A stretch of 15,768 nt of DNA from Propionibacteriaceae bacterium (GTDB taxonomy: Bacteria > Actinomycetota > Actinomycetes > Propionibacteriales > Propionibacteriaceae): NCBI GenBank assembly GCA_031255975.1, contig JAIRRM010000092.1, positions 1-15,768 on the forward strand, given 5' to 3'. This document shows, piece after piece, positions 1 through 10,642 of this stretch. Below the pieces are notes generated by a model. The model made no database searches. It was not told where the DNA came from and saw nothing but the letters and a program-made list of their open reading frames with translations. Both the position numbers and the translations under genes were made by a program. Position 1 is the stretch's first letter. Each line of letters starts with the position of its first letter.

Positions 1-3000
1 CGGTGGTGGCGTTCACCGACGGCAACCAGATCGGTGCGGTACTCGACCGCAACGGATTACGCCCGGCCCGCTATTGGCTTACCCGCGACAACCGCATCAT
101 CTTCGCCTCCGAAGCCGGGGTGTTGCCGGTGGCCCCCGCCGACGTGCTCTCCAAAGGACGACTGCGTCCCGGACGGGTGCTGCTGGCCGACATCTCGGCG
201 CACCGTCTCATCGACGACCGCGAGATCAAGGACGCGCTGGCCGCCGAGCATCCGTACGGCGAATGGCTGGCGGCGGGCGTGGTAAGCATAGATGACCTGC
301 CAGAGCGTACCCATGTGGTGCATTCACCCGCGTCCGTCAACCGTCGCGGGCAGATATTCGGCTACACCCATGAGGAACTGCGCCGCATCATCGCGCCGAT
401 GGCCAACACCGGCGCGGAACCGGTGGGCGCAATGGGCGACGACACTCCGCTGGCGGTGCTCTCCGACAAGCCGCGCAACCTGTTCGACTATTTCCGCCAG
501 GTATTCGCTCAGGTTACCAACCCTCCGTTGGACGCCATCCGTGAGGAGTTGGTCACCTCACTTGCCACCGGTATCGGCCCAGAGGCGAACCTACTGGCAC
601 CGGGGCCGGATTCCTGCCGCCAAATCGTCATTCCGTTCCCGATCCTGGATTCGGAGCAGTTGGCCAAAATCGTGCATCTGGGGGAGCACTCCGGGCAGCC
701 CACCGGTGGCCACACCCATGTCATCCGGGGCCTTTATGACGTGGATCACGGGGCTGCCGCGCTTAGGGAGCGGCTCAATCAGATTCGTGACGAGGTGAGT
801 GTCGCCATCGCCGCCGGGGCGCGGGTGATCGTGCTCTCCGACAGGCACTCCGATGGAGATCACGCTCCGATCCCGTCACTGTTGCTCACCGCCGCCATCC
901 ACAATCATTTGGTGAACGTGAAGCAGCGCACTCAGGTGGGGTTGATCGTCGAGGCCGGCGATGTACGCGAAGCGCACCATGCCGCGCTGCTCATCGGCTA
1001 TGGGGCGGCTGCCATCAATCCGTATCTCGCGTTCGAGACCGCCGAAGATTTGGCCCGGCGTGAGTTGTATGTCACCGTGGCACCTGAGAAGGCCATCGAG
1101 AATGTACGCAAGGCGCTCGGCAAGGGTGTGCTCAAAGTGATGAGCAAAATGGGCATCTCTACCATCTCCAGTTACACCGGTGCCCAGGTTTTCGAGGCGG
1201 TTGGTCTGGCGCAGGATTTTGTGGACGAGTTTTTCACCGGCACGGTGAGCCGTATCGGTGGCATCGGATTGGAGCAGGTGGCCCGCACCAGCGCCGCGCA
1301 GCATGCGTTGGGCTATCCGCTCACCGGCAATAAGCAACCACATCGTACGTTGCCCAGCGGCGGTGATTACCAGTGGCGGCGTGAGGGTGAGGAGCACCTG
1401 TTCGATCCGGAGGCTATCTTCACGCTGCAACAGGCGGTACGTGCCAACGATCCCGCCCTGTTCAGGCGCTACAGCGACCGCATCAACGACTCGTCAGGGC
1501 GATTGATGACGCTACGCGCCCTGTTCGAGTTGAAAGGTGTCCGTCCGGCGGTGCCACTCGACGAGGTGGAACCGGCTTCCGAGATCGTGAAGCGGTTCTC
1601 CACCGGGGCGATGAGTTTTGGTTCCATCTCAAAGGAGGCGCACGAGAACGTCGCCATCGCCATGAATCTGCTGGGCGGTAAATCGAACACCGGTGAGGGT
1701 GGTGAGGACCCAGAACGCCTCTACGACCCAGCACGCTGCTCTGCCATCAAACAAGTGGCCAGCGGGCGATTCGGAGTGACCAGCGAGTACCTGGCGAACG
1801 CCACCGATATTCAGATCAAGATGGCGCAAGGTGCGAAGCCGGGCGAGGGGGGGCAACTGCCCGGCCAGAAGGTGTACCCGTGGGTGGCGAAGGTGCGCCA
1901 TTCCACCCCTGGGGTGCAACTCATCAGCCCGCCGCCACACCACGACATCTACTCCATTGAGGACATCAAGCAGCTGATCCACGACCTGAAAAGCGCCAAT
2001 CCACTAGCCCGCGTTCATGTGAAGTTGGTATCCGAATCCGGTGTGGGCACGGTCGCCGCCGGAGTGGTGAAGGCGAAAGCCGACGTGATTCTCATCTCCG
2101 GGCATGACGGCGGCACCGGGGCCAGTCCACTCACCTCCATCAAGCACGCCGGTAGCCCGTGGGAACTGGGTTTGGCCGAGGTGCAGCAGACACTATTGCT
2201 GAACGGTCTGCGTGATCGGGTGGCGGTGCAGGTGGACGGCCAACTCAAGACCGGTCGCGATGTGGTGGTGGCCACGCTGTTGGGGGCGGAGGAGTTCGGG
2301 TTCTCCACCACGGTGCTGGTGGCCAGCGGTTGTGTGATGATGCGGGTGTGCAACAAAGATACCTGTCCGGTTGGTATCGCCACCCAGAATCCAGCATTAC
2401 GCAAATACTTCACCGGGAAGCCGGAATATATCGTCAATTTCTTCATGATGCTGGCCGAGGAAGTGCGCGAACTGCTGGCTGAACTCGGATTCCGCAGCGT
2501 CAAAGAGGCGGTAGGGCATGTGGAGGCGTTGCACTTGCGTAAGGCGCTGAATCACTGGAAGGCCGCCGGGCTTGACCTCACCCCGGTGCTCACCAACGTG
2601 GAGCCGAAGCGGGGGCAACGGCGGCACCAGGCGCGGGCGCAAGATCACGAACTCGACAAGGCGCTCGATGTGAGTCTGATCGCCGCCGCCCAGCCTGCCA
2701 TCGCCGCCGGTACCCCGGTGGTAGCTGATTTCGAGGTGCGCAATACGCATCGCACCGTGGGTACCACGCTTGGCTACCACGTCACCAAGGCCACCCGTGG
2801 TGCTGGACTACCAGAGAACACCATTGACTTCACCCTCACCGGTACCGGTGGACAGAGCTTCGGGGCGTTCCTGCCACGCGGTGTGACACTTAGGCTGGTG
2901 GGGGACTGCAACGACTATCTCGGCAAAGGGCTCTCCGGTGGACGCATCATCGTGTATCCGCACCCAGATTCCCCGTTCGATCCGGCGAATGAGATCGTGG

Positions 3001-3497
3001 CCGGCAACGTCATCGGCTACGGTGCCACCAGCGGGCAGTTGCTACTGCGCGGCCAGGTGGGGGAGCGGTTCTGTGTGCGTAACTCTGGCGCGACCGCAAT
3101 CGTCGAAGGGGTCGGCGACCATGGCTGCGAGTACATGACCGGTGGTGAGGCGCTGATCCTCGGCCCTACGGGGCGCAACTTCGCAGCAGGTATGTCGGGG
3201 GGCGTGGCCTGGGTGCTCGACCTTGATCCGGGGCGGCTCAACACCGAGTTGGTGGACGCTGAACCGCTCGGCGGGGCCGACGTGGCGCGGGTGTCAGAGC
3301 TATTGGCGATGCACCAGCTAGAAACTGGTTCCACCGTGGCGGCGACACTGTTGGCCGAAAGCCGTATCGCGGAACGGTTCACCAAAATCGTGCCACGCGA
3401 TTATGCAAAAGTGTTGGCTGCCAAAGAGCAGGGCATCGCCGAAGGAGTGAGTGAAGACCGGCTCGTGGAGATGATGATGGAGGCGACCCGTGGCTGA
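1..3497 (+). CDS. gltB: Glutamate synthase large (alpha) subunit, 5' partial
   Basis: This is the large subunit of NADPH-dependent glutamate synthase (GOGAT), which moves the amide of glutamine onto 2-oxoglutarate in the cytoplasm. The reading frame is open from base 3 and the start lies upstream. About 1164 residues are present against roughly 1500 in the family, so most of the N-terminal glutamine amidotransferase domain is missing; its end is visible at residues 1-90 ([11 protein letters not shown]). The central domain follows to about residue 430. The FMN-binding synthase domain then runs to about 880, with [14 protein letters not shown] near 700 and the 3Fe-4S cysteines as Cx5Cx4C from residue 777 ([12 protein letters not shown]). 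The C-terminal GXGXG beta-helix ([10 protein letters not shown]) is at about 930-1115. The stop overlaps the gltD start by 8 bases, so the two are coupled. No frameshift or missing cofactor residue is seen. Confidence 0.97.
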
Positions 3498-4944
3498 CCC
3501 ACAAGGTTTCATGAAGGTGCCGCGTCAGATCGCGGAGCGTCGTCCGGTCAACGAAAGAATAGCGGACTGGCAGGAGGTGTACCCCGGCACTCCAGGTGCC
3601 GCCGTACTGCCTTTCATCGAGGCGCAGGCCAGCCGCTGTATGGATTGTGGTGTGCCGTTTTGTCATTCCGCTTGCCCGCTCGGCAATCTGATGCCGGAGT
3701 GGAACGATTTGGTGTGGAAGGACGAGTGGCAGGTTGCCGCTGATCGGTTACACGCCACCAACAACTTCCCGGAGTTCACCGGCAGGCTCTGCCCGGCGCT
3801 CTGTGAAGCGGCGTGTGTGGTGGGTACGGTACGTGAACCGGTCACCATCAAGAACATCGAGGTGGCGATCATCGACCGCGCTTGGGCCGACCGGCGCGTC
3901 GAACCGGTGAGCCCGGATTGGCACTCGCTGAAAACCATCGCCGTGGTGGGTTCCGGCCCCTCTGGGCTGGCGCTCGCGCAGCAGTTGACCCGCGCCGGGC
4001 ACACCGTGGTGGTATATGAGCGCGCCGACGCCATCGGCGGCCTGCTGCGTTACGGCATCCCCAATTTCAAACTGGAAAAGGGCGTGCTTGATCGCAGACT
4101 GAAGCAGATGGCGCTGGAGGGCACCACCTTCAAGACCGGCGTTAGCATTGGGCGTGACATCACCGGGGCGCAACTGGTGGAACGCTTCGATGCGGTGGTG
4201 CTGGCCATCGGTTCCACGCTACCCCGCGACTTGGCCGTACCGGGCCGTGAACTGGTGGGCGTACATCAGGCGATGGAGTATCTATCCGCCGCCACGAAGG
4301 CGGTGAGCGATGGGGTTGAGTCCGGCATCGACGCCAAGGGAAAACATGTCGTCGTCATCGGCGGCGGCGATACCGGCGCTGACTGTGTAGGCACGGCCAT
4401 CCGGCAGGGTGCGGCCAGTGTCACCAGCTTGGAGATCATGCCACGGCCTGGCGTGGAGCGCCCGGCGGGCCAGCCGTGGCCGACGTATCCCAATGTCTAC
4501 CGCGTAGCCAGCGCGCATGAAGAAGGGGGTGAGCGACGCTACTCCGTCTCCACCACCAGGTTCATCGGTGCGAATGGTCATGTCAGCGCCATCGAGATCA
4601 GCGACGTGGATGCAAATTTGACTCCCGTCCCGGGCACTGCTCGCACTTTGCCCGCCGATCTGGTGCTACTGGCGATGGGCTTCCTGGGCCCGGAACGGGG
4701 TGGCTTGGTCGGTGAGTTGGGTTTGGAGTTGGACGTCAGGGGCAATATTGCGCGGGGTGCCGATTTCCAGACCAGTGTGCCTGGAGTGTTCGCGTGTGGA
4801 GATTGTGGTCGGGGGCAGTCGCTCATCGTTTGGGCTATCGCCGAGGGGCGTTCCTGCGCGAATGGTGTCGATGCTTTTCTCACCGGACGGGTGAGGGGTT
4901 TGCCGAACCCCATCGTTCCCTCCGCGCGCGCCTTGACCGTTTGA
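3490..4944 (+). CDS. gltD: Glutamate synthase small (beta) subunit
   Basis: The small subunit of glutamate synthase takes electrons from NADPH through FAD and iron-sulfur centres and passes them to GltB. The protein is 484 residues, normal for the family. The N-terminal ferredoxin-like part has cysteines 50, 53, 58 and 62 ([13 protein letters not shown]) and a second group at 101, 105 and 109 (CPALCEAAC). Next come the FAD-binding motif [15 protein letters not shown] near 155, the NADPH-binding motif [14 protein letters not shown] near 290, and the C-terminal FAD contact [12 protein letters not shown] near 435. The GTG start at 3490 is set by a GGAGG at 3479-3483, six bases upstream and inside the end of gltB. 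A broken copy of this gene's last ~75 codons lies 1.6 kb downstream, beyond the secreted-protein gene. No convincing terminator hairpin follows the stop. Confidence 0.97.
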
Positions 4945-5033
4945 TGCTCTAGCGGCTCTGTGTCGAAAGCATTGCGTTCGGCGGTGGGTGGCATCTGGAT
5001 GATACTGTTTGGACGAGTTTCGCGCTTGAGATG

Positions 5034-5065
5034 TTTACTGATGATTGCAGGAGTGGGCATATAAT
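5034..5065 (+). promoter_or_regulatory. Likely promoter of the secreted-protein gene
   Basis: A perfect TATAAT lies at 5060-5065, in an AT-rich patch that stands out from its surroundings. The best upstream element is TTTACT at 5034-5039, four of six matches to TTGACA, with a wide 20-base spacer; no better -35 box is present at 17 bases. Transcription would start near 5072 and give a leader of about 120 bases before the GTG at 5192. The position fits independent expression of the secreted-protein gene. The -10 box is clear and the -35 box is weak. Confidence 0.5.
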
Positions 5066-5177
5066 ATGACCCGGCTGAGTCCGAGACCTTTGTACTATTA
5101 CCGAGGCTCTGCGGCCGTGCGCCGTGGCGGCGAGGTCTGCCCTTGGCGTCATTGGAGAAGGCGTTTGGTACTGGTTT

Positions 5178-5185
5178 GAGGAGGT
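5178..5185 (+). promoter_or_regulatory. Strong ribosome binding site
   Basis: GAGGAGGT is nearly the full anti-Shine-Dalgarno complement and ends six bases before the GTG at 5192. It fixes that GTG as the start of the secreted protein and is among the strongest ribosome binding sites in the window. Confidence 0.8.
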
Positions 5186-5191
5186 TACGCT

Positions 5192-6307
5192 GTGCGTGTT
5201 GGGAAGGTTTGCGTGGCGCTGGTTTTCGCCGTGATGTTGTTGGTGCAAGTGTTCCCGGGGCGTGCGGCGGCGTACACCTACTCCAGCACTTATTACCCGC
5301 GCCTCGGCTACGTCATCAATCACTACCAAGATAAAGCGGGGAACGGCGGTGTGGTTGTGGGGTTTAATCTCAATCACCTTAACGACGATGTCACCGTCGT
5401 TGATTTTCCGTTTCTCGAATCCTTGTACCTTCCCCTCCGGGCTTTGGATGCGACGGCTTTTGCGACAAACTCTGAAAATCTGCAACTAATCACGCTGCCG
5501 GACACTATCGTCGAGATTCAGCCGGGGGCGTTCTCTGGTTGTACTCATCCAGATTTTGAGGTTTTCGCGCCCACGCAAGCGATATACGACCTGATTGTTG
5601 CCGCTGGCCTTCCTCCCGACAGGATCGCCACCGCTCCCGTGGTCAACACGCCTGGTTCGACCACTGTCGCCTACGATGGCACGACGATCGATCTAGTCGC
5701 GCTCTCCGAGTTATTTACCGTAGATCCCCATGCTGGTGCTCCGAGCTACAGCCTGGAAGCTGGCGGCACCGGGGCGGGCACCGTCTCGACTGGTACGCTC
5801 ACCATCACCAAAACGGGAGAGTTTGTCATTGGATTGGTAACCGCGCAGAACGGCTCCTACGAGGCTGGCGCTCTGGTGAGAGCCACGCTTACCGTGGAAA
5901 AAGGAACCCGTTCCGCTCCGGCAGGGCTCAGCGTGGCTGATGCGGCCAACTTAGGCGGTACCGACGGCAAAATCATCGGACTCGCAGCCGATACGGCATA
6001 CGAGTATCGCAAAGATGGCGGTAGCTACACGCTGGCGGTTTCCAACGCCGCCGGTGAGATCACCGGCCTCGCGGCAGGCTCCTACGTGGTGCGGTTCCCG
6101 GCGAATGACTTGTATCCCGCCAGTCCGGACTCGGTTGCGACCGTGATTGCCGAACCGTTCCCGGCACCGCCGGATGTCGCAACCGGTGGCAGTCTCACGG
6201 GCGGTGCCGGCACCGCCGGGTTGGCGCTTTGGATCGGTTTGCTGGGCATCGGCGCGCCGGGAATGGCTGGTTGCGCCCGTACCCTCGCCCGCCGCAAGTC
6301 CCAGTAG
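5192..6307 (+). CDS. Secreted surface protein with leucine-rich-like and beta-repeat segments
   Basis: This encodes a 371-residue exported protein of unknown role, probably held at the cell surface. Residues 1-27 are a typical signal peptide: basic start (MRVGK), hydrophobic core, and an AAA cleavage site before YTYSS. Residues ~75-150 resemble one or two turns of a BspA-type leucine-rich repeat (ITLPDTIVEIQPGAFSGC). Residues ~160-240 look like an Ig-like beta domain. Residues ~245-320 match a short repeat known in Gram-positive surface proteins, with the landmarks GGTDGKIIGL, YEYRKDGGSY and EITGLAAGSYVVRF. The C-terminus has a sorting-signal layout without LPXTG: VATGG at 329-333, a hydrophobic stretch at ~339-358, and a basic end (ARRKSQ). 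The GTG start is fixed by GAGGAGGT. The gene has a clear -10 box, lower GC in its first third than its neighbours, and a decayed gltD end behind it, all suggesting insertion. A role in adhesion is only a guess. Confidence 0.85.
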   Translation: MRVGKVCVALVFAVMLLVQVFPGRAAAYTYSSTYYPRLGYVINHYQDKAGNGGVVVGFNLNHLNDDVTVVDFPFLESLYLPLRALDATAFATNSENLQLITLPDTIVEIQPGAFSGCTHPDFEVFAPTQAIYDLIVAAGLPPDRIATAPVVNTPGSTTVAYDGTTIDLVALSELFTVDPHAGAPSYSLEAGGTGAGTVSTGTLTITKTGEFVIGLVTAQNGSYEAGALVRATLTVEKGTRSAPAGLSVADAANLGGTDGKIIGLAADTAYEYRKDGGSYTLAVSNAAGEITGLAAGSYVVRFPANDLYPASPDSVATVIAEPFPAPPDVATGGSLTGGAGTAGLALWIGLLGIGAPGMAGCARTLARRKSQ

Positions 6308-6351
6308 CGCGGAGCGCCGCCAATCGGAGTGTCCGGCGAGGGCGGGGCGCG

Positions 6352-6539
6352 GTTTGGGGTTGGAGGCCGGGGGGCGGCATTGTGCGTGGTGCCAGTTTCC
6401 AGATCAATGCGCCTGGGGCTTCGCGTGTGGAGGTTGTGGTCGCTCATCGCCTGGGCTATCGCCGTGGGGCGTTCCTGAGCGGATGGTCTCATGGAACGGG
6501 GTGAGTGGTTTGCTCCCTTCCGCGCGTCCCTTGGTTTGA
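6352..6539 (+). pseudogene. Decayed duplicate of the gltD 3' end
   Basis: This stretch aligns with 4721-4944, the last ~75 codons of gltD. Short shared blocks include TTTCCAGA, TCGCGTGTGGAG, TTGTGGTCG, TGGGCTATCGCCG and GGGGCGTTCCTG. By hand, the part matching 4817-4862 shows about five mismatches in 46 bases; the earlier part is nearer 80 per cent identical. Read with frame changes it still gives GGIVRGASFQ (glt[11 protein letters not shown]), FACGGCG (FACGDCG) and SLIAWAIAVGRS ([12 protein letters not shown]). It is broken by compensating one-base changes near 6370 and 6420, a 10-base deletion after 6441, an in-frame TGA at 6477-6479, and further deletions before a conserved end at the gltD stop position (TTTGATG). 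Homology ends at the stop. It lacks the rest of gltD and cannot make a working protein. It fills most of the space between the secreted-protein gene and dnaE. Confidence 0.88.
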
Positions 6540-6562
6540 TGGGATAGGTGGCCGGGTAGACT
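6536..6562 (+). promoter_or_regulatory. Possible weak promoter before dnaE
   Basis: TAGACT at 6557-6562 fits the loose actinobacterial -10 pattern, and TTGATG at 6536-6541 resembles a -35 box, but the spacer is only 15 bases. If real, the -35 box is made partly from the decayed gltD stop region. It is offered as the best candidate between the secreted-protein gene and dnaE, with low confidence. Confidence 0.2.
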
Positions 6563-6601
6563 CGGCTGCACCGCAGGGCTTGTTTCGAGGGGGTGGTGTG
6601 C

Positions 6602-9600
6602 GTGCTCGGTTTCGTACATCTGCACAACCACACCGATTATTCGATGCTTGACGGTGCCGCCCGGCCGGAGGAGTTGATCGTCGCCGCGGCAACCCAGGGA
6701 ATGTCGGCGCTGGCCATCACCGACCATGGCAACATGTTCGGTGCCTACGACTTCTACAAGGGGTGCCAGAAGGCTGGTATCAGACCGATCATCGGTCTGG
6801 AGGCGTATGTGACGCCCGGCACTTCACGCTTTGAGCGTATCCGGGTGCAGTGGGGTGACGGTGGCGGCGACGATGTGTCGTCCAAAGGGGCATACACCCA
6901 TATGACCATGTGGGCGGAGACCACCGAGGGGATGCTGAACCTGTTCCGATTGACATCGAAAGCCAGCTTGGAGGGTGTGTTCTACAAGCCTCGTATCGAC
7001 CGCGAACTGCTGCACCGTTACCACGCGGGCATCATCGCCACCACCGGTTGTCCTTCCGGTGAGGTGGCCACCAAGTTACGTGTCGGACGTTACGACGACG
7101 CGCTGGCCGCGGCCGCCGAGTTCCAAGACATCTTCGGGCGCGACAACTTCTTCGTGGAGTTGATGGATCACGGGATCCCGATCGAGCAGCGTACCCGCGA
7201 CGATTTGCTCCGGGTGGCTCATGCCATCGGCGCTCCGTTGGTGGCTACCAACGATCTGCACTACGTAAAGTCTTCCGATGCCCAGATCCATGACGACCTG
7301 TTGTGCGTGCAAGCCGGTGCGTTACGCTCCGACACTGATCGGTTCCATTTCGAAGCGCAGGAGTTCTATCTCAAAAGCGCGGCCGAAATGCGTGCCCTTT
7401 TTATCGGACGGGAAGAAGCCTGCGACAACACCCTGGCGATCGCGGAACGCTGCCAGGCGCAGTTTGTCGAGGAAGAGGGGCGTTACATGCCCCAGCCGGT
7501 GTTGCCAGAGGGCGAAACCGAGGAAAGCTGGCTCCGGCACGAGACCGAAATCGGGCTCATCGAACGTTTCGGGTCGCCGTTGCCGGACGTAGTACGCGAG
7601 CGCGCCGAGTATGAACTCGACGTCATCGTGCAGAAACGCTACGCCGGTTACTTCCTGGTGGTCTCCGATTACGTACGTTGGGCCAAGACGCAGGGCATCG
7701 GGGTAGGGCCAGGGCGTGGTTCCGGTGCCGGATCGCTGGTTGCGTACGCCATGAGCATCACCGAGGTGGATCCACTGCGCTTCGGCCTGCTGTTCGAGCG
7801 TTTCCTGAACCCGGAGCGGCCGTCCCTGCCTGACTTCGACATCGATTTCGACGACCGCCGTCGCGGCGAGGTAATCGACTATGTAACCCATAAATACGGT
7901 ACCGACCATGTGGCGCAGATCGTCACCTTCGGTCGGATTCAGTCGAAACAGGCGGTGCAGGACGCCGCCCGTATCCTCGGCGAGCCGGTGTCCGTGGGTG
8001 AGAAGATGTCCAAGGAGATGCCGGGAGGTGCCCAGGGCGTCCATATCACCCTGGCGGACATGGTGAACTCCGAGTCGAAGCATTACCGGGAGGCGGCCCC
8101 GTTCCGTGACCTGGTATCAACCAGCCCCAACTACCAGCAGGTGTTGGACGTAGCCATCGGGCTGGAGGGGTTGAAGCGCAACTGGGGGGTACACGCCGCC
8201 GGCGTCATCATGTCGAGTGCGCCGTTTGAGGATGTCATCCCTATCATGCGCCGCGACAAGGATGGGGCCATCATCACTCAGTTCGACTATCACAGCGCCG
8301 AGGCGTTGGGGTTGGTCAAGATGGACTTTTTGGGACTGCGCAACCTGTCGATGCTCTCCGACACGGTAGAGAACATCCGGCTGAACACCGGCGTGGAGAT
8401 CGACCTAGACGAATTGATGCGCGACCCGTCCGACGCGGAGACGTACCGTTTGCTGCGTGAAGGCAACACCCTGGGTATTTTCCAGATGGACTCCGACGGC
8501 ATTCAGACGTTGATGCGGGAAATGCGAGCTGACAGTTTCGACGACATCACCGCCGTGCTCGCCCTATATCGCCCCGGCCCGATGGGCCAAGACGCCCACA
8601 CCACCTACGCCGCCCGCAAACGCGGTGAGCAGCGTGTCACCCCCATTCACGTGGAGTTCGTCGACTCCATCGGGGACATTCTGGAGCCGACATACGGTCT
8701 GATCGTCTACCAGGAACAGGTGATGCAGATCGCGCAGCGGGTGGCTGGTTACTCCATGGGACGCGCAGACAAGCTGCGTAAGGTGATGGGCAAGAAGGAC
8801 TCCGTCGCGCTGGAAGCGGAGCACGAGCCGTTCGTAGCCGCCATGCTGGAGCGCAACTTTTCGCGCGAAGCCATCGATGCTTTGTGGGAGGTGTTGGTTC
8901 CGTTCGCGTCCTACGCCTTCAACAAGTCGCACAGCGTGGCGTACGCCTTCATCTCGTACTGGACGGCGTACCTCAAAGCCCATTATCCGGTGGAGTTTAT
9001 GGCGGCGCTGCTGGAATCCGTGAAAGGCAACCGCGACCGGTTCACCGGCTATCTGAACGAGTGTCGCCGTATGGGTATCAAGGTGCTGCCTCCCGATGTG
9101 AACGAGTCGGAGCAGCGTTTTGCCGCAGTTGGCGGCAACATCCGCTTTGGGCTTTCGGCCATCAAGGGGGTGGGCGAGGGTGTCGTCGCCGACATGTTGC
9201 AGGCCCGACGGGAGAAGAGCCAGGCCACCAGCTTCTACGACTTCATGGAGAAGGCACCAGCCAGCGCCTGTAATAAGCGGGTCGTCGAAGCGCTCATCAA
9301 GTCGGGGGCCTTCGATTCACTGGGCCACAACCGCCGCACCCTGATGAGCATCTTCATGGAGGCGGTGGACTCCATGACCCAGACGAAACGTAACGAGGAG
9401 TTCGGGCAGGGCGACCTATTCGGTGGCGCGGCGTCGCAGGGCGGTAAGCAGTATCCAGAGATCACGGTGATCGACGAGTGGGATCGCCGTACCAAACTGG
9501 CGTTCGAGCGCGAAATGCTGGGGTTACAAATCTCCGACCACCTGCTCGCCGGGCTGGATCATGTGCTCGCCAACTATCGCACTCACACCATTGACCAACT

Positions 9601-10108
9601 TTCTGATTTGGCCGATGGGACGAAGGTGTCGGTGTGCGGCCAGATCTGTAACCCGCCACAGCGCAGACAGTCCAAGCGGGGGCAGTTGTATGCCATCATT
9701 GACCTTGATGACCGCCACGGCCAGGTTTCAGCTACGGTGTTCCCCGGCGTGTACGAAAAAGACAGCGAAGCCGTGGTACAAGACAATGTGGTGCAGCTCA
9801 GCGGTCAGGTTACCCATCGCGGCGACATCGTGGAGATCAGGGCGAAGTCGGTGGCGGCGTTGGATCTGGGCTCGCTGGAGGATCGTCCATTCACCATCGC
9901 GTTGCGCTCCACCCGCTGCACCCCCAAGGTGGTGGGGGAACTCAAAACCATCCTGGGACGCCACGTCGGCGCGTCTGAGGTGTTGCTACGGCTGACAGAC
10001 GGAGCGAAAGCCACCACTTTGCGACTGGACGAGTCGATTAGGGTACACGCCTCCGACGAATTGATGAGCGAATTGAAGGCACTGCTCGGACCGGGGTGTG
10101 TCGCCTGA
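6602..10108 (+). CDS. dnaE: DNA polymerase III alpha subunit with PHP proofreading domain
   Basis: This is the replicative DNA polymerase catalytic subunit, 1168 residues, of the actinobacterial DnaE1 type. The N-terminal PHP domain keeps the metal-binding set known from mycobacterial DnaE1: His8, His10 and Asp17 (HLHNHTDYSMLD), DHGN, GLEAY, YTHMTM, TTGCPSGE, and Asp218/His220 (TNDLHY). Intrinsic 3'-5' exonuclease activity is therefore expected. The polymerase core has GPGRGSGAGSLVAYAM and the catalytic aspartates 413 and 415 in PDFDIDF. A helix-hairpin-helix (LSAIKGVGEGVV) lies near 860, and an OB fold (KVSVCGQI to HRGDIVEIRAKSV) near 1010-1090. The GTG at 6602 was chosen because GAGGGGG at 6587-6593 ends eight bases before it; GTG codons at 6593 and 6596 are in frame but sit on or too close to that site. 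Housekeeping gene, no intein or frameshift. Confidence 0.97.
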   Translation: MLGFVHLHNHTDYSMLDGAARPEELIVAAATQGMSALAITDHGNMFGAYDFYKGCQKAGIRPIIGLEAYVTPGTSRFERIRVQWGDGGGDDVSSKGAYTHMTMWAETTEGMLNLFRLTSKASLEGVFYKPRIDRELLHRYHAGIIATTGCPSGEVATKLRVGRYDDALAAAAEFQDIFGRDNFFVELMDHGIPIEQRTRDDLLRVAHAIGAPLVATNDLHYVKSSDAQIHDDLLCVQAGALRSDTDRFHFEAQEFYLKSAAEMRALFIGREEACDNTLAIAERCQAQFVEEEGRYMPQPVLPEGETEESWLRHETEIGLIERFGSPLPDVVRERAEYELDVIVQKRYAGYFLVVSDYVRWAKTQGIGVGPGRGSGAGSLVAYAMSITEVDPLRFGLLFERFLNPERPSLPDFDIDFDDRRRGEVIDYVTHKYGTDHVAQIVTFGRIQSKQAVQDAARILGEPVSVGEKMSKEMPGGAQGVHITLADMVNSESKHYREAAPFRDLVSTSPNYQQVLDVAIGLEGLKRNWGVHAAGVIMSSAPFEDVIPIMRRDKDGAIITQFDYHSAEALGLVKMDFLGLRNLSMLSDTVENIRLNTGVEIDLDELMRDPSDAETYRLLREGNTLGIFQMDSDGIQTLMREMRADSFDDITAVLALYRPGPMGQDAHTTYAARKRGEQRVTPIHVEFVDSIGDILEPTYGLIVYQEQVMQIAQRVAGYSMGRADKLRKVMGKKDSVALEAEHEPFVAAMLERNFSREAIDALWEVLVPFASYAFNKSHSVAYAFISYWTAYLKAHYPVEFMAALLESVKGNRDRFTGYLNECRRMGIKVLPPDVNESEQRFAAVGGNIRFGLSAIKGVGEGVVADMLQARREKSQATSFYDFMEKAPASACNKRVVEALIKSGAFDSLGHNRRTLMSIFMEAVDSMTQTKRNEEFGQGDLFGGAASQGGKQYPEITVIDEWDRRTKLAFEREMLGLQISDHLLAGLDHVLANYRTHTIDQLSDLADGTKVSVCGQICNPPQRRQSKRGQLYAIIDLDDRHGQVSATVFPGVYEKDSEAVVQDNVVQLSGQVTHRGDIVEIRAKSVAALDLGSLEDRPFTIALRSTRCTPKVVGELKTILGRHVGASEVLLRLTDGAKATTLRLDESIRVHASDELMSELKALLGPGCVA

Positions 10109-10150
10109 CTATGGTGTGCTGGGCCGAGATAGCGCACTAGAGTGTGGCAT

Positions 10151-10642
10151 ATGAGGTTGGAGGTGCGTACCCGGGTGCTGCTGCTCAGCGGCGTCTGCCT
10201 GGCCTCCGCCGCGCTCGGCGGCTTGGTGTGGCATTCGGCTACGGTGGTGCAGGCGTACACCATCGGCGCGGATGGTGGCGCTGTCATCACCGAGCGAGGA
10301 CTGTCACAGTTGTTCGCCATCGATGTGTGGTACGCGTTCACCGGGCTCATCATCGGCATTCTGCTCGGGGCGCTCACCTGGGCGCTGTTCCATGAGATCG
10401 GCTGGTGGGTGGCACCGCTTGCCGCCGTGGTGGGGTTGGTGGCCGCAGTGGTGTGCTGGCGAGTCGGGGTGGCGTTCGGCCCGTCGGATTTCGCAACCCG
10501 AGTGGTGGCGGCACAGCCTGGCGACAAGGTGCCGGTCGATTTCAAGCTGCACACCCTGGTGGCGCTGCTGACCTGGCCGTTTGGGGCGCTGGTGCCGGTG
10601 GCGCTGTACGCGGCGTTCGAGCGTGGGCCGGTAGAATCCTGA
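10151..10642 (+). CDS. Four-helix membrane protein, DUF2567-like
   Basis: This is a small inner-membrane protein of about 163 residues with no known biochemical function. Four hydrophobic segments are visible: ~8-32, ~57-78, ~82-105 and ~135-155. Between the first two is a short outside loop containing GADGGAVITERGLSQLFAIDVWYAF, given here only as its landmarks GADGG and DVWYAF. The third segment ends in VVCWRVGVAFGPSDFATR, and the last begins LHTLVALLTWPFGAL. This pattern, especially WRVG..FGP and LLTWPFGAL, resembles the DUF2567 family of actinobacterial membrane proteins, by memory rather than search. The ATG at 10151 has a weak AGAG eight bases upstream; an in-frame GTG at 10142 would add three residues. 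It lies 42 bases after dnaE and only 2 bases before hisD, so it probably heads the histidine operon. Whether it has anything to do with histidine is not shown. Confidence 0.8.
   Translation: MRLEVRTRVLLLSGVCLASAALGGLVWHSATVVQAYTIGADGGAVITERGLSQLFAIDVWYAFTGLIIGILLGALTWALFHEIGWWVAPLAAVVGLVAAVVCWRVGVAFGPSDFATRVVAAQPGDKVPVDFKLHTLVALLTWPFGALVPVALYAAFERGPVES

What the first reader, a model, noticed from the sequence alone, without database searches (positions are those of the whole stretch)
4721..6539. Surface-protein gene bracketed by intact and decayed copies of the gltD 3' end
The last ~75 codons of gltD (4721-4944) recur at 6352-6539 as a broken copy. Both end at the stop codon, and the secreted-protein gene lies between them. 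The proteins read from the two opposite strands also share a matching stretch ([13 protein letters not shown] and QERPTAIAQAMSD), which confirms the duplication. The simplest history is that gltD once lay directly before dnaE, and an element carrying the secreted-protein gene plus a replacement gltD end integrated there, leaving the old end to decay. This could be Campbell-type homologous integration or a site-specific integrase using a gene 3' end. A tandem duplication followed by partial loss would give the same layout.
Basis: partly seen in the sequence, partly recalled or inferred. Interest (0 to 1): 0.72.

Follow-up and report, generated by a model that had tools for sequence, protein, structure and literature searches.

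The report
Surface-protein gene captured behind gltD
In an uncultured actinobacterium, a foreign-looking surface-protein gene was inserted between two housekeeping genes, leaving behind a broken second copy of the end of one of them; the way this happens is known, so it is a well-preserved example rather than a new kind of system.

Summary
The last 75 codons of gltD (4720-4946) recur, damaged, at 6351-6541 (161 of 190 aligned bases identical, 9 gaps), with a 371-codon secreted-protein gene between. A congener (G005) has the empty site: gltD directly before dnaE, with a spacer matching the DNA after the damaged copy and not that after the intact copy. So the damaged copy marks the old junction; 4947-6350 and one gltD end are new. 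The two ends show no excess of third-codon-position differences (6/13/10), unlike gltD between species (9/7/38): they were near-identical at birth and one decayed in place, so the new end was not foreign. No integrase was found in the interval. Best reading: single-crossover (Campbell-type) integration of a circle carrying the gltD 3' end plus the gene, an outcome seen experimentally at E. coli lacZ (PMC3240628). The gene stayed open while the remnant took five frameshifts, so selection probably kept it. A second, independent case exists in another genus (G124: YCII and sigma-factor genes between gltD and a 204-nt gltD end), with a diverged donor. New member of a known kind; modest interest.

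The parts
3490..4944 (+). gltD, intact (484 aa), glutamate synthase small subunit
   Evidence: ORF; Pfam Pyr_redox_2 and Fer4_20; 84% and 82% identical to G006 and G005; the name gltD is my reading of these
4720..4946 (+). intact copy of the duplicated block: last 75 codons of gltD (stop included) plus 2 nt
4947..5191 (+). new DNA before the cargo gene, 55.5% G+C, no match to the flank of the other copy
   Evidence: no match elsewhere in own genome at E 0.001
5192..6307 (+). cargo gene, 371 aa: hydrophobic N-terminus like a signal peptide (my reading), weak BspA-type leucine-rich repeat at residues 88-118, a part (206-342) resembling other open frames, hydrophobic C-terminus followed by RRK (my reading)
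   Evidence: lowest host codon-usage fit of 10 window genes, the other nine being the training set
6308..6350 (+). short linker, 81% G+C, between the cargo stop and the recognisable start of the remnant
6351..6541 (+). decayed copy of the gltD 3' end (9 gap events, 29 substitutions)
6542..6592 (+). ancestral spacer before dnaE, with a TAGACT -10-like hexamer at 6557-6562; TAGA[AC]T also occurs upstream of dnaE in G005 and, further from the start, in G006
6593..10108 (+). dnaE, intact
   Evidence: ORF; 83-85% identical to G005 and G006; the name is my reading of the translation

Best explanation
A piece of DNA in which the 3' end of gltD was followed by the surface-protein gene entered the cell, was trimmed and closed into a circle, and integrated by one homologous crossover within the gltD end (Campbell-type single crossover). 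The crossover gave gltD a complete, near-identical 3' end followed by the cargo gene. It also pushed the resident last 75 codons of gltD downstream, where they still carry the old spacer of dnaE but lack the rest of the gene. That remnant then decayed without constraint, while the cargo gene stayed open. Shown: both copies, the empty site in G005, which copy lies at the ancestral junction, decay from near-identity without coding constraint, absence of the cargo in six congeners. Inferred: the circle, the single crossover, a donor of the same or a very close lineage in which the cargo followed gltD, and selection on the cargo.
For: Duplicated block with sharp ends. G005 has gltB-gltD-dnaE with about 53 nt between gltD and dnaE; that spacer matches the DNA after the decayed copy (14.8 against 7.4 +/- 1.3, 0 of 300) and not the DNA after the intact copy (118 of 300). 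Cargo in 0 of 6 congeners; in 198 family genomes, own included, one other genome has a partial match and no other any. Differences between the copies by codon position are 6/63, 13/62, 10/63, against 9/61, 7/60, 38/61 for intact versus G005; of the 29 differences, 12 are changes in the decayed copy, 3 in the intact one, and 14 cannot be polarised. Five frameshifting gaps in 227 nt would predict about 24 in 1,113 nt of cargo, which has an open frame. PMC3240628: of 60 E. coli Lac-minus clones obtained with a cut plasmid of one-sided homology, 56 gave the PCR product diagnostic for a duplication of the lacZ end; 14 were sequenced and held 109-950 bp, explained as single crossover of a trimmed circle (passages and Discussion read). 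Independent parallel in G124.
Against: No donor molecule or strain was found. The cargo has no full-length relative in what was searched, so foreign origin rests on absence in relatives and on codon usage. In G006 gltD and dnaE are not neighbours, so the adjacency in the close group rests on G005 alone (longer intervals in six more distant relatives). [quoted passage not shown] Any event that duplicates about 225 nt around an insert leaves the same final map.
Confidence: 0.6

Rival explanations
1. Homology-facilitated illegitimate recombination: a linear donor fragment (gltD end plus cargo) crossed over homologously inside gltD at one end and was joined without homology at the other end, inside the resident gltD about 225 nt before its stop.
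For: Gives the same final map; proposed for displaced gene ends in Vibrio effector arrays (PMC5361080, passages read).
Against: The product is generally a deletion of about the size of the insert, and in E. coli most products with the expected phenotype were duplications from circularised molecules (PMC3240628).
Confidence: 0.17
2. Insertion with a long target duplication: a staggered break or template switch at the gltD stop copied about 225 nt on both sides of a captured cargo fragment, without any gltD homology on the incoming DNA.
For: The two ends were near-identical at birth, as expected if both come from the same chromosome.
Against: The duplication ends within 2 nt of the stop codon, which I judge unlikely by chance (not computed), and does so again in G124, where the two ends are diverged coding sequence (14 of 16 codon-assigned differences at third positions). 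No Ku gene was detected in the 7 genomes of the genus, own included (six of the seven are below 90% completeness).
Confidence: 0.15
3. Site-specific integration of a mobile element whose attachment site carries a replacement gltD 3' end, as e14 does at icd, followed by loss of all but the cargo gene.
For: Same architecture and similar block length as e14 at icd (163 bp, PMC6379469 passages).
Against: No recombinase or phage family in the interval, no tRNA in the window, no inverted repeats within 4930-5200 or within 6290-6620 (one search lists four weak pairs in 4000-7600, one of them, 4682-4715 with 6717-6750 at 74%, bracketing the insert from inside gltD and dnaE). An element's own gene end should differ mostly at third positions; this one does not. 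Left breakpoints differ between the window (codon 411) and G124 (codon 420). No confirmed relative of the gltD end or the cargo in viral contigs.
Confidence: 0.05
4. Tandem duplication of gltD end plus cargo, then loss of one copy.
For: Tandem duplications are common (general knowledge).
Against: Needs the cargo already between gltD and dnaE, and complete loss of its second copy with the old dnaE spacer left directly after the decayed gltD end.
Confidence: 0.03

Closest known systems
Single-crossover integrants of trimmed, circularised linear DNA at E. coli lacZ (PMC3240628; passages and Discussion read)
   Same: An insert flanked by a complete gene end and a second, shortened copy of that end; duplicated length 109-950 bp in 14 sequenced clones, here 225 nt.
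   Different: Laboratory plasmid with a selected marker; here a natural, old event with a decayed remnant and a surface-protein cargo.
e14 prophage at icd in E. coli (PMC6379469, passages read; it cites Hill 1989)
   Same: A housekeeping gene receives a new 3' end and the old end stays as a pseudogene of 163 bp.
   Different: e14 integrates site-specifically as a phage; no recombinase was found here, and the new end was not a diverged element-borne version.
Displaced effector 3' ends in Vibrio type VI clusters (PMC5361080, passages read)
   Same: One-sided homology is proposed to insert a new gene and shift the old 3' end downstream.
   Different: There effector-immunity modules are displaced; here a metabolic gene end is duplicated and an unrelated gene is gained.
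G124 (same family, another genus): gltD, YCII, DUF6596 sigma factor, second gltD end
   Same: Same architecture, remnant of 204 nt ending at the stop codon.
   Different: Other cargo; remnant still open; 14 of 16 codon-assigned differences at third positions (plus two compensating one-base gaps), so the donor was a diverged lineage.

Membership tests
Campbell-type single-crossover integrant | Insert bounded by direct repeats of the homologous segment | tested here: met
   4720-4946 and 6351-6541 bracket the insert
Campbell-type single-crossover integrant | Uninterrupted ancestral site in a relative | tested here: met
   G005 gltD-dnaE with matching spacer; one relative only
Campbell-type single-crossover integrant | Distal copy shortened at its 5' side and carrying the native downstream flank | tested here: met
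   Recognisable remnant starts at codon 411 and is followed by the dnaE spacer
Campbell-type single-crossover integrant | Donor or circular intermediate | not testable with these tools
Site-specific integrative element at a gene 3' end (e14-like) | Integrase or other recombinase gene in the element | tested here: not met
   No recombinase match in the cargo or in six further open frames of the interval (Pfam), nor for three of these in PHROGs
Site-specific integrative element at a gene 3' end (e14-like) | Element-borne gene end evolved as a coding sequence (third-position differences) | tested here: not met
   6/13/10 by codon position; third against first plus second P = 1.0
BspA-type leucine-rich repeat surface protein | Match to LRR_5 above the curated cut-off | tested here: not met
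   16 bits against 27.7; local similarity to two solved surface-protein chains, 4gt6 and 4fs7, at residues 86-122

The most novel reading that the evidence does not exclude
The 3' end of gltD is a recurrent gene-capture site in this family: unrelated genes are repeatedly acquired behind it by one-sided homology, each event leaving a gltD-end scar of about 200-225 nt that works as a built-in clock and as a record of whether the donor was of the same or another lineage.
Probability: 0.15. Interest if true: 0.5.

Novelty: new member of a known kind. Interest (0 to 1): 0.33.

Why it matters
Small insertions make up much of bacterial diversity, and their mechanism is usually invisible. Here the scar survives: the empty site, the direction of decay and the codon-position test together separate a donor of the same lineage (window) from a diverged donor (G124), and the frameshift load of the scar suggests that the inserted surface gene was kept. 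The same test can be run on other gene ends.

Tried and rejected
Repeat limits: extension beyond 4720/6351 and beyond the stop codon was tested and not supported.

Integrase, RNA and repeat leads: no tRNA or Rfam family in the window, no inverted repeats within either flank of the insert (four weak pairs in 4000-7600), no recombinase or phage family in the interval, no confirmed viral relative of the gltD end or cargo, no plasmid match. Two unannotated faecal phage records match part of the cargo.

NHEJ: Ku not detected in 7 genomes of the genus, own included; the same search rang in 1 of 14 control genomes.

LRR_5 in the genus: one sub-cut-off match, in G006, unrelated in place.

Fold of the cargo: single-sequence AlphaFold2 gave mean pLDDT 35 and was not used.

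Foreign gltD tail in the window: third-position divergence from G005 is flat along gltD (228/409 before the block, 45/74 in it, P = 0.45). It rises against G006 (184/409 to 49/74, P = 0.0009), but so does G005 against G006 (231/409 to 54/74, P = 0.01), and G006's own end has skewed third bases, so I assign the rise to G006.

Donor for G124: none of the 20 genomes of its genus, G124 included, shows another gltD followed by YCII and sigma. Which of G124's two ends is native was not resolved.

Surveys: one search found two matches in 7 of 349 genomes with a gltD end (391 searched). G124 was inspected and has a doubled end. G026, G029 and G032 have a second gltD elsewhere. G215, G218 and G221, of the same genus as those three, were not followed. 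In one search (394 class genomes, 370 with a match) many genomes have two matches; these were neither counted nor followed, so that survey neither supports nor opposes recurrence. Frameshifted remnants, the window's own among them, escape these protein surveys, so counts are lower bounds. No control gene was surveyed for comparison.

Full report
Where it is. The window is contig 65 of a draft genome of 1,607,479 bases in 212 contigs, 88.6% complete. Gene order is gltB, gltD, cargo, dnaE, a 166-aa protein, then his genes (gene names are largely my reading of the translations).

The observation. The block 4720-4946 recurs at 6351-6541: 190 aligned columns, 161 identical, score 132 against at most 33 in 500 randomised versions. 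The right copy has lost 8 stretches and gained 1 nt; five of the nine events are not multiples of three. Both copies end at the stop codon plus 2 nt, and no significant similarity continues on either side.

The empty site. Six congeners are held. In G005, gltB, gltD, dnaE, the 166-aa protein, hisD and hisC lie in the same order with about 53 nt between gltD and dnaE. That spacer matches the DNA after the decayed copy (14.8 against 7.4 +/- 1.3, 0 of 300 as good) and not the DNA after the intact copy (118 of 300). So the decayed copy sits at the old junction and 4947-6350 is new. G006 does not show the adjacency: the two genes lie on different contigs, gltD followed by an AbiEi_4 antitoxin-like gene and dnaE preceded by an aminotransferase gene. 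gltD was not found in G001-G003 (76-81% complete); in G004 gltD and dnaE lie on different contigs. The cargo is in 0 of 6 congeners; in 198 family genomes, own included, it is whole only in the window's genome, and one other genome, G183, has a partial match.

Age and origin of the two ends. Intact and decayed copies differ at 6/63, 13/62 and 10/63 first, second and third codon positions. Intact against G005 gives 9/61, 7/60, 38/61 and against G006 13/63, 7/62, 41/63. The share of third-position differences is lower between the two copies than between intact and G005 (P = 0.002). Of the 29 differences, 12 are changes in the decayed copy, 3 in the intact one and 14 cannot be polarised. The two ends were therefore near-identical when they parted, and one decayed without coding constraint. 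The new end came from the same or a very close lineage.

The cargo. It is 371 aa, with a hydrophobic N-terminus, a weak BspA-type repeat (16 bits, below the 27.7 cut-off; similar to two solved surface-protein chains at 86-122), a part at 230-342 that resembles a 2,120-codon open frame of G183 (E 8.9e-6) and at 206-325 two faecal phage records, and a hydrophobic C-terminus. It has the lowest host codon-usage fit of ten window genes (0.041 against 0.131-0.348; the other nine are also the training set) and the lowest third-position G+C (0.67 against 0.70-0.83). At the remnant's rate of frameshifting gaps, about 24 would be expected in its 1,113 nt, yet the frame is open. If it arrived in the same event it has probably been kept by selection. 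With no full-length relative this cannot be checked by dN/dS, and gaps made at the birth of the remnant would inflate the rate.

A second case. A DNA survey of 197 family genomes (107 with a match) gave two matches in only two: the window's genome and G124, a 7.2-Mb single-contig genome of another genus, with a listed contamination of 7%. In G124 gltD is followed by a YCII gene, a DUF6596 sigma-factor gene and, directly after the sigma stop codon, a second gltD end of 204 nt that is still open. Its two ends differ at 1/68, 1/66 and 14/67 codon positions, besides two compensating one-base gaps, so they had evolved as coding sequence in different lineages before being joined. G135, the nearest relative held (gltD 94%), has no second end and no YCII or sigma gene in the 6.2 kb read; gltD and the same AlkZ-like flank are about 3.9 kb apart there. 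Left breakpoints differ (codon 411 in the window, 420 in G124). Order survey: 349 of 391 genomes have a gltD end and 7 have two; only G124 is shown to have them side by side (the others are told in Tried and rejected).

Neighbourhood. Where gltD and dnaE lie on one fetched locus, the distance between the two matches is 60 (G005), 470, 761, 800, 1652 (window), 2472, 2717 and 4609 nt in eight genomes, with different open frames (their families were not tested). Among the gltD loci (120 rows, redundant and window-derived rows included), no second end better than E = 1e-6 appears outside the window-derived rows.

Mechanism. A circle carrying the gltD end plus cargo, integrated by one crossover, gives this map with native flank on the distal copy and a remnant cut at its 5' side. 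In E. coli, 56 of 60 Lac-minus clones obtained with a cut plasmid of one-sided homology gave the PCR product diagnostic for a partial duplication of the lacZ end; 14 were sequenced (109-950 bp), explained as trimming, circularisation and single crossover (PMC3240628; passages and Discussion read). Homology-facilitated illegitimate recombination would give the same map but generally deletes (same paper). e14 at icd leaves a 163-bp icd remnant (PMC6379469, passages) but is a site-specific phage, and no recombinase was found here. Small variable segments are a recognised class of bacterial diversity (PMC2884548, passages). A paper search on gltD, dnaE, insertion and glutamate synthase listed 10 of 73 papers, none on this site by title and abstract start (listing only).

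Verdict. The finding is a real, well-preserved scar of a one-gene insertion, with a known mechanism. Its value lies in the internal tests and in the second case.

Noticed in passing
L129 (G006) 898-1200, minus strand: The last 85 or so codons of gltD in G006 have skewed third codon bases (C 26, G 1 in the last 34 codons) just before an AbiEi_4 antitoxin-like gene, as if this end too had been exchanged.
   Followed up: partly
L133 (G124) 6350-9609, minus strand: gltD, YCII and DUF6596 sigma-factor genes, then a second gltD end that starts directly after the sigma stop codon.
   Followed up: yes
L009, L011, L033-L036: The gltD-dnaE interval differs in length and open frames among relatives, so it is a variable site.
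   Followed up: partly
window 6557-6562: TAGA[AC]T hexamer upstream of dnaE also in G005 and G006; in G005 any -35 element would overlap the gltD 3' end, so the remnant may keep part of the dnaE promoter (inference).
   Followed up: no
window 10142-10642: 166-aa protein without a family match above cut-off between dnaE and hisD, conserved in place in G005 (80%) and more weakly in G002 and G003.
   Followed up: no
window 5807-6166: Cargo residues 206-325 resemble stretches of two unannotated human faecal phage records, MT837546 and MT835501.
   Followed up: no
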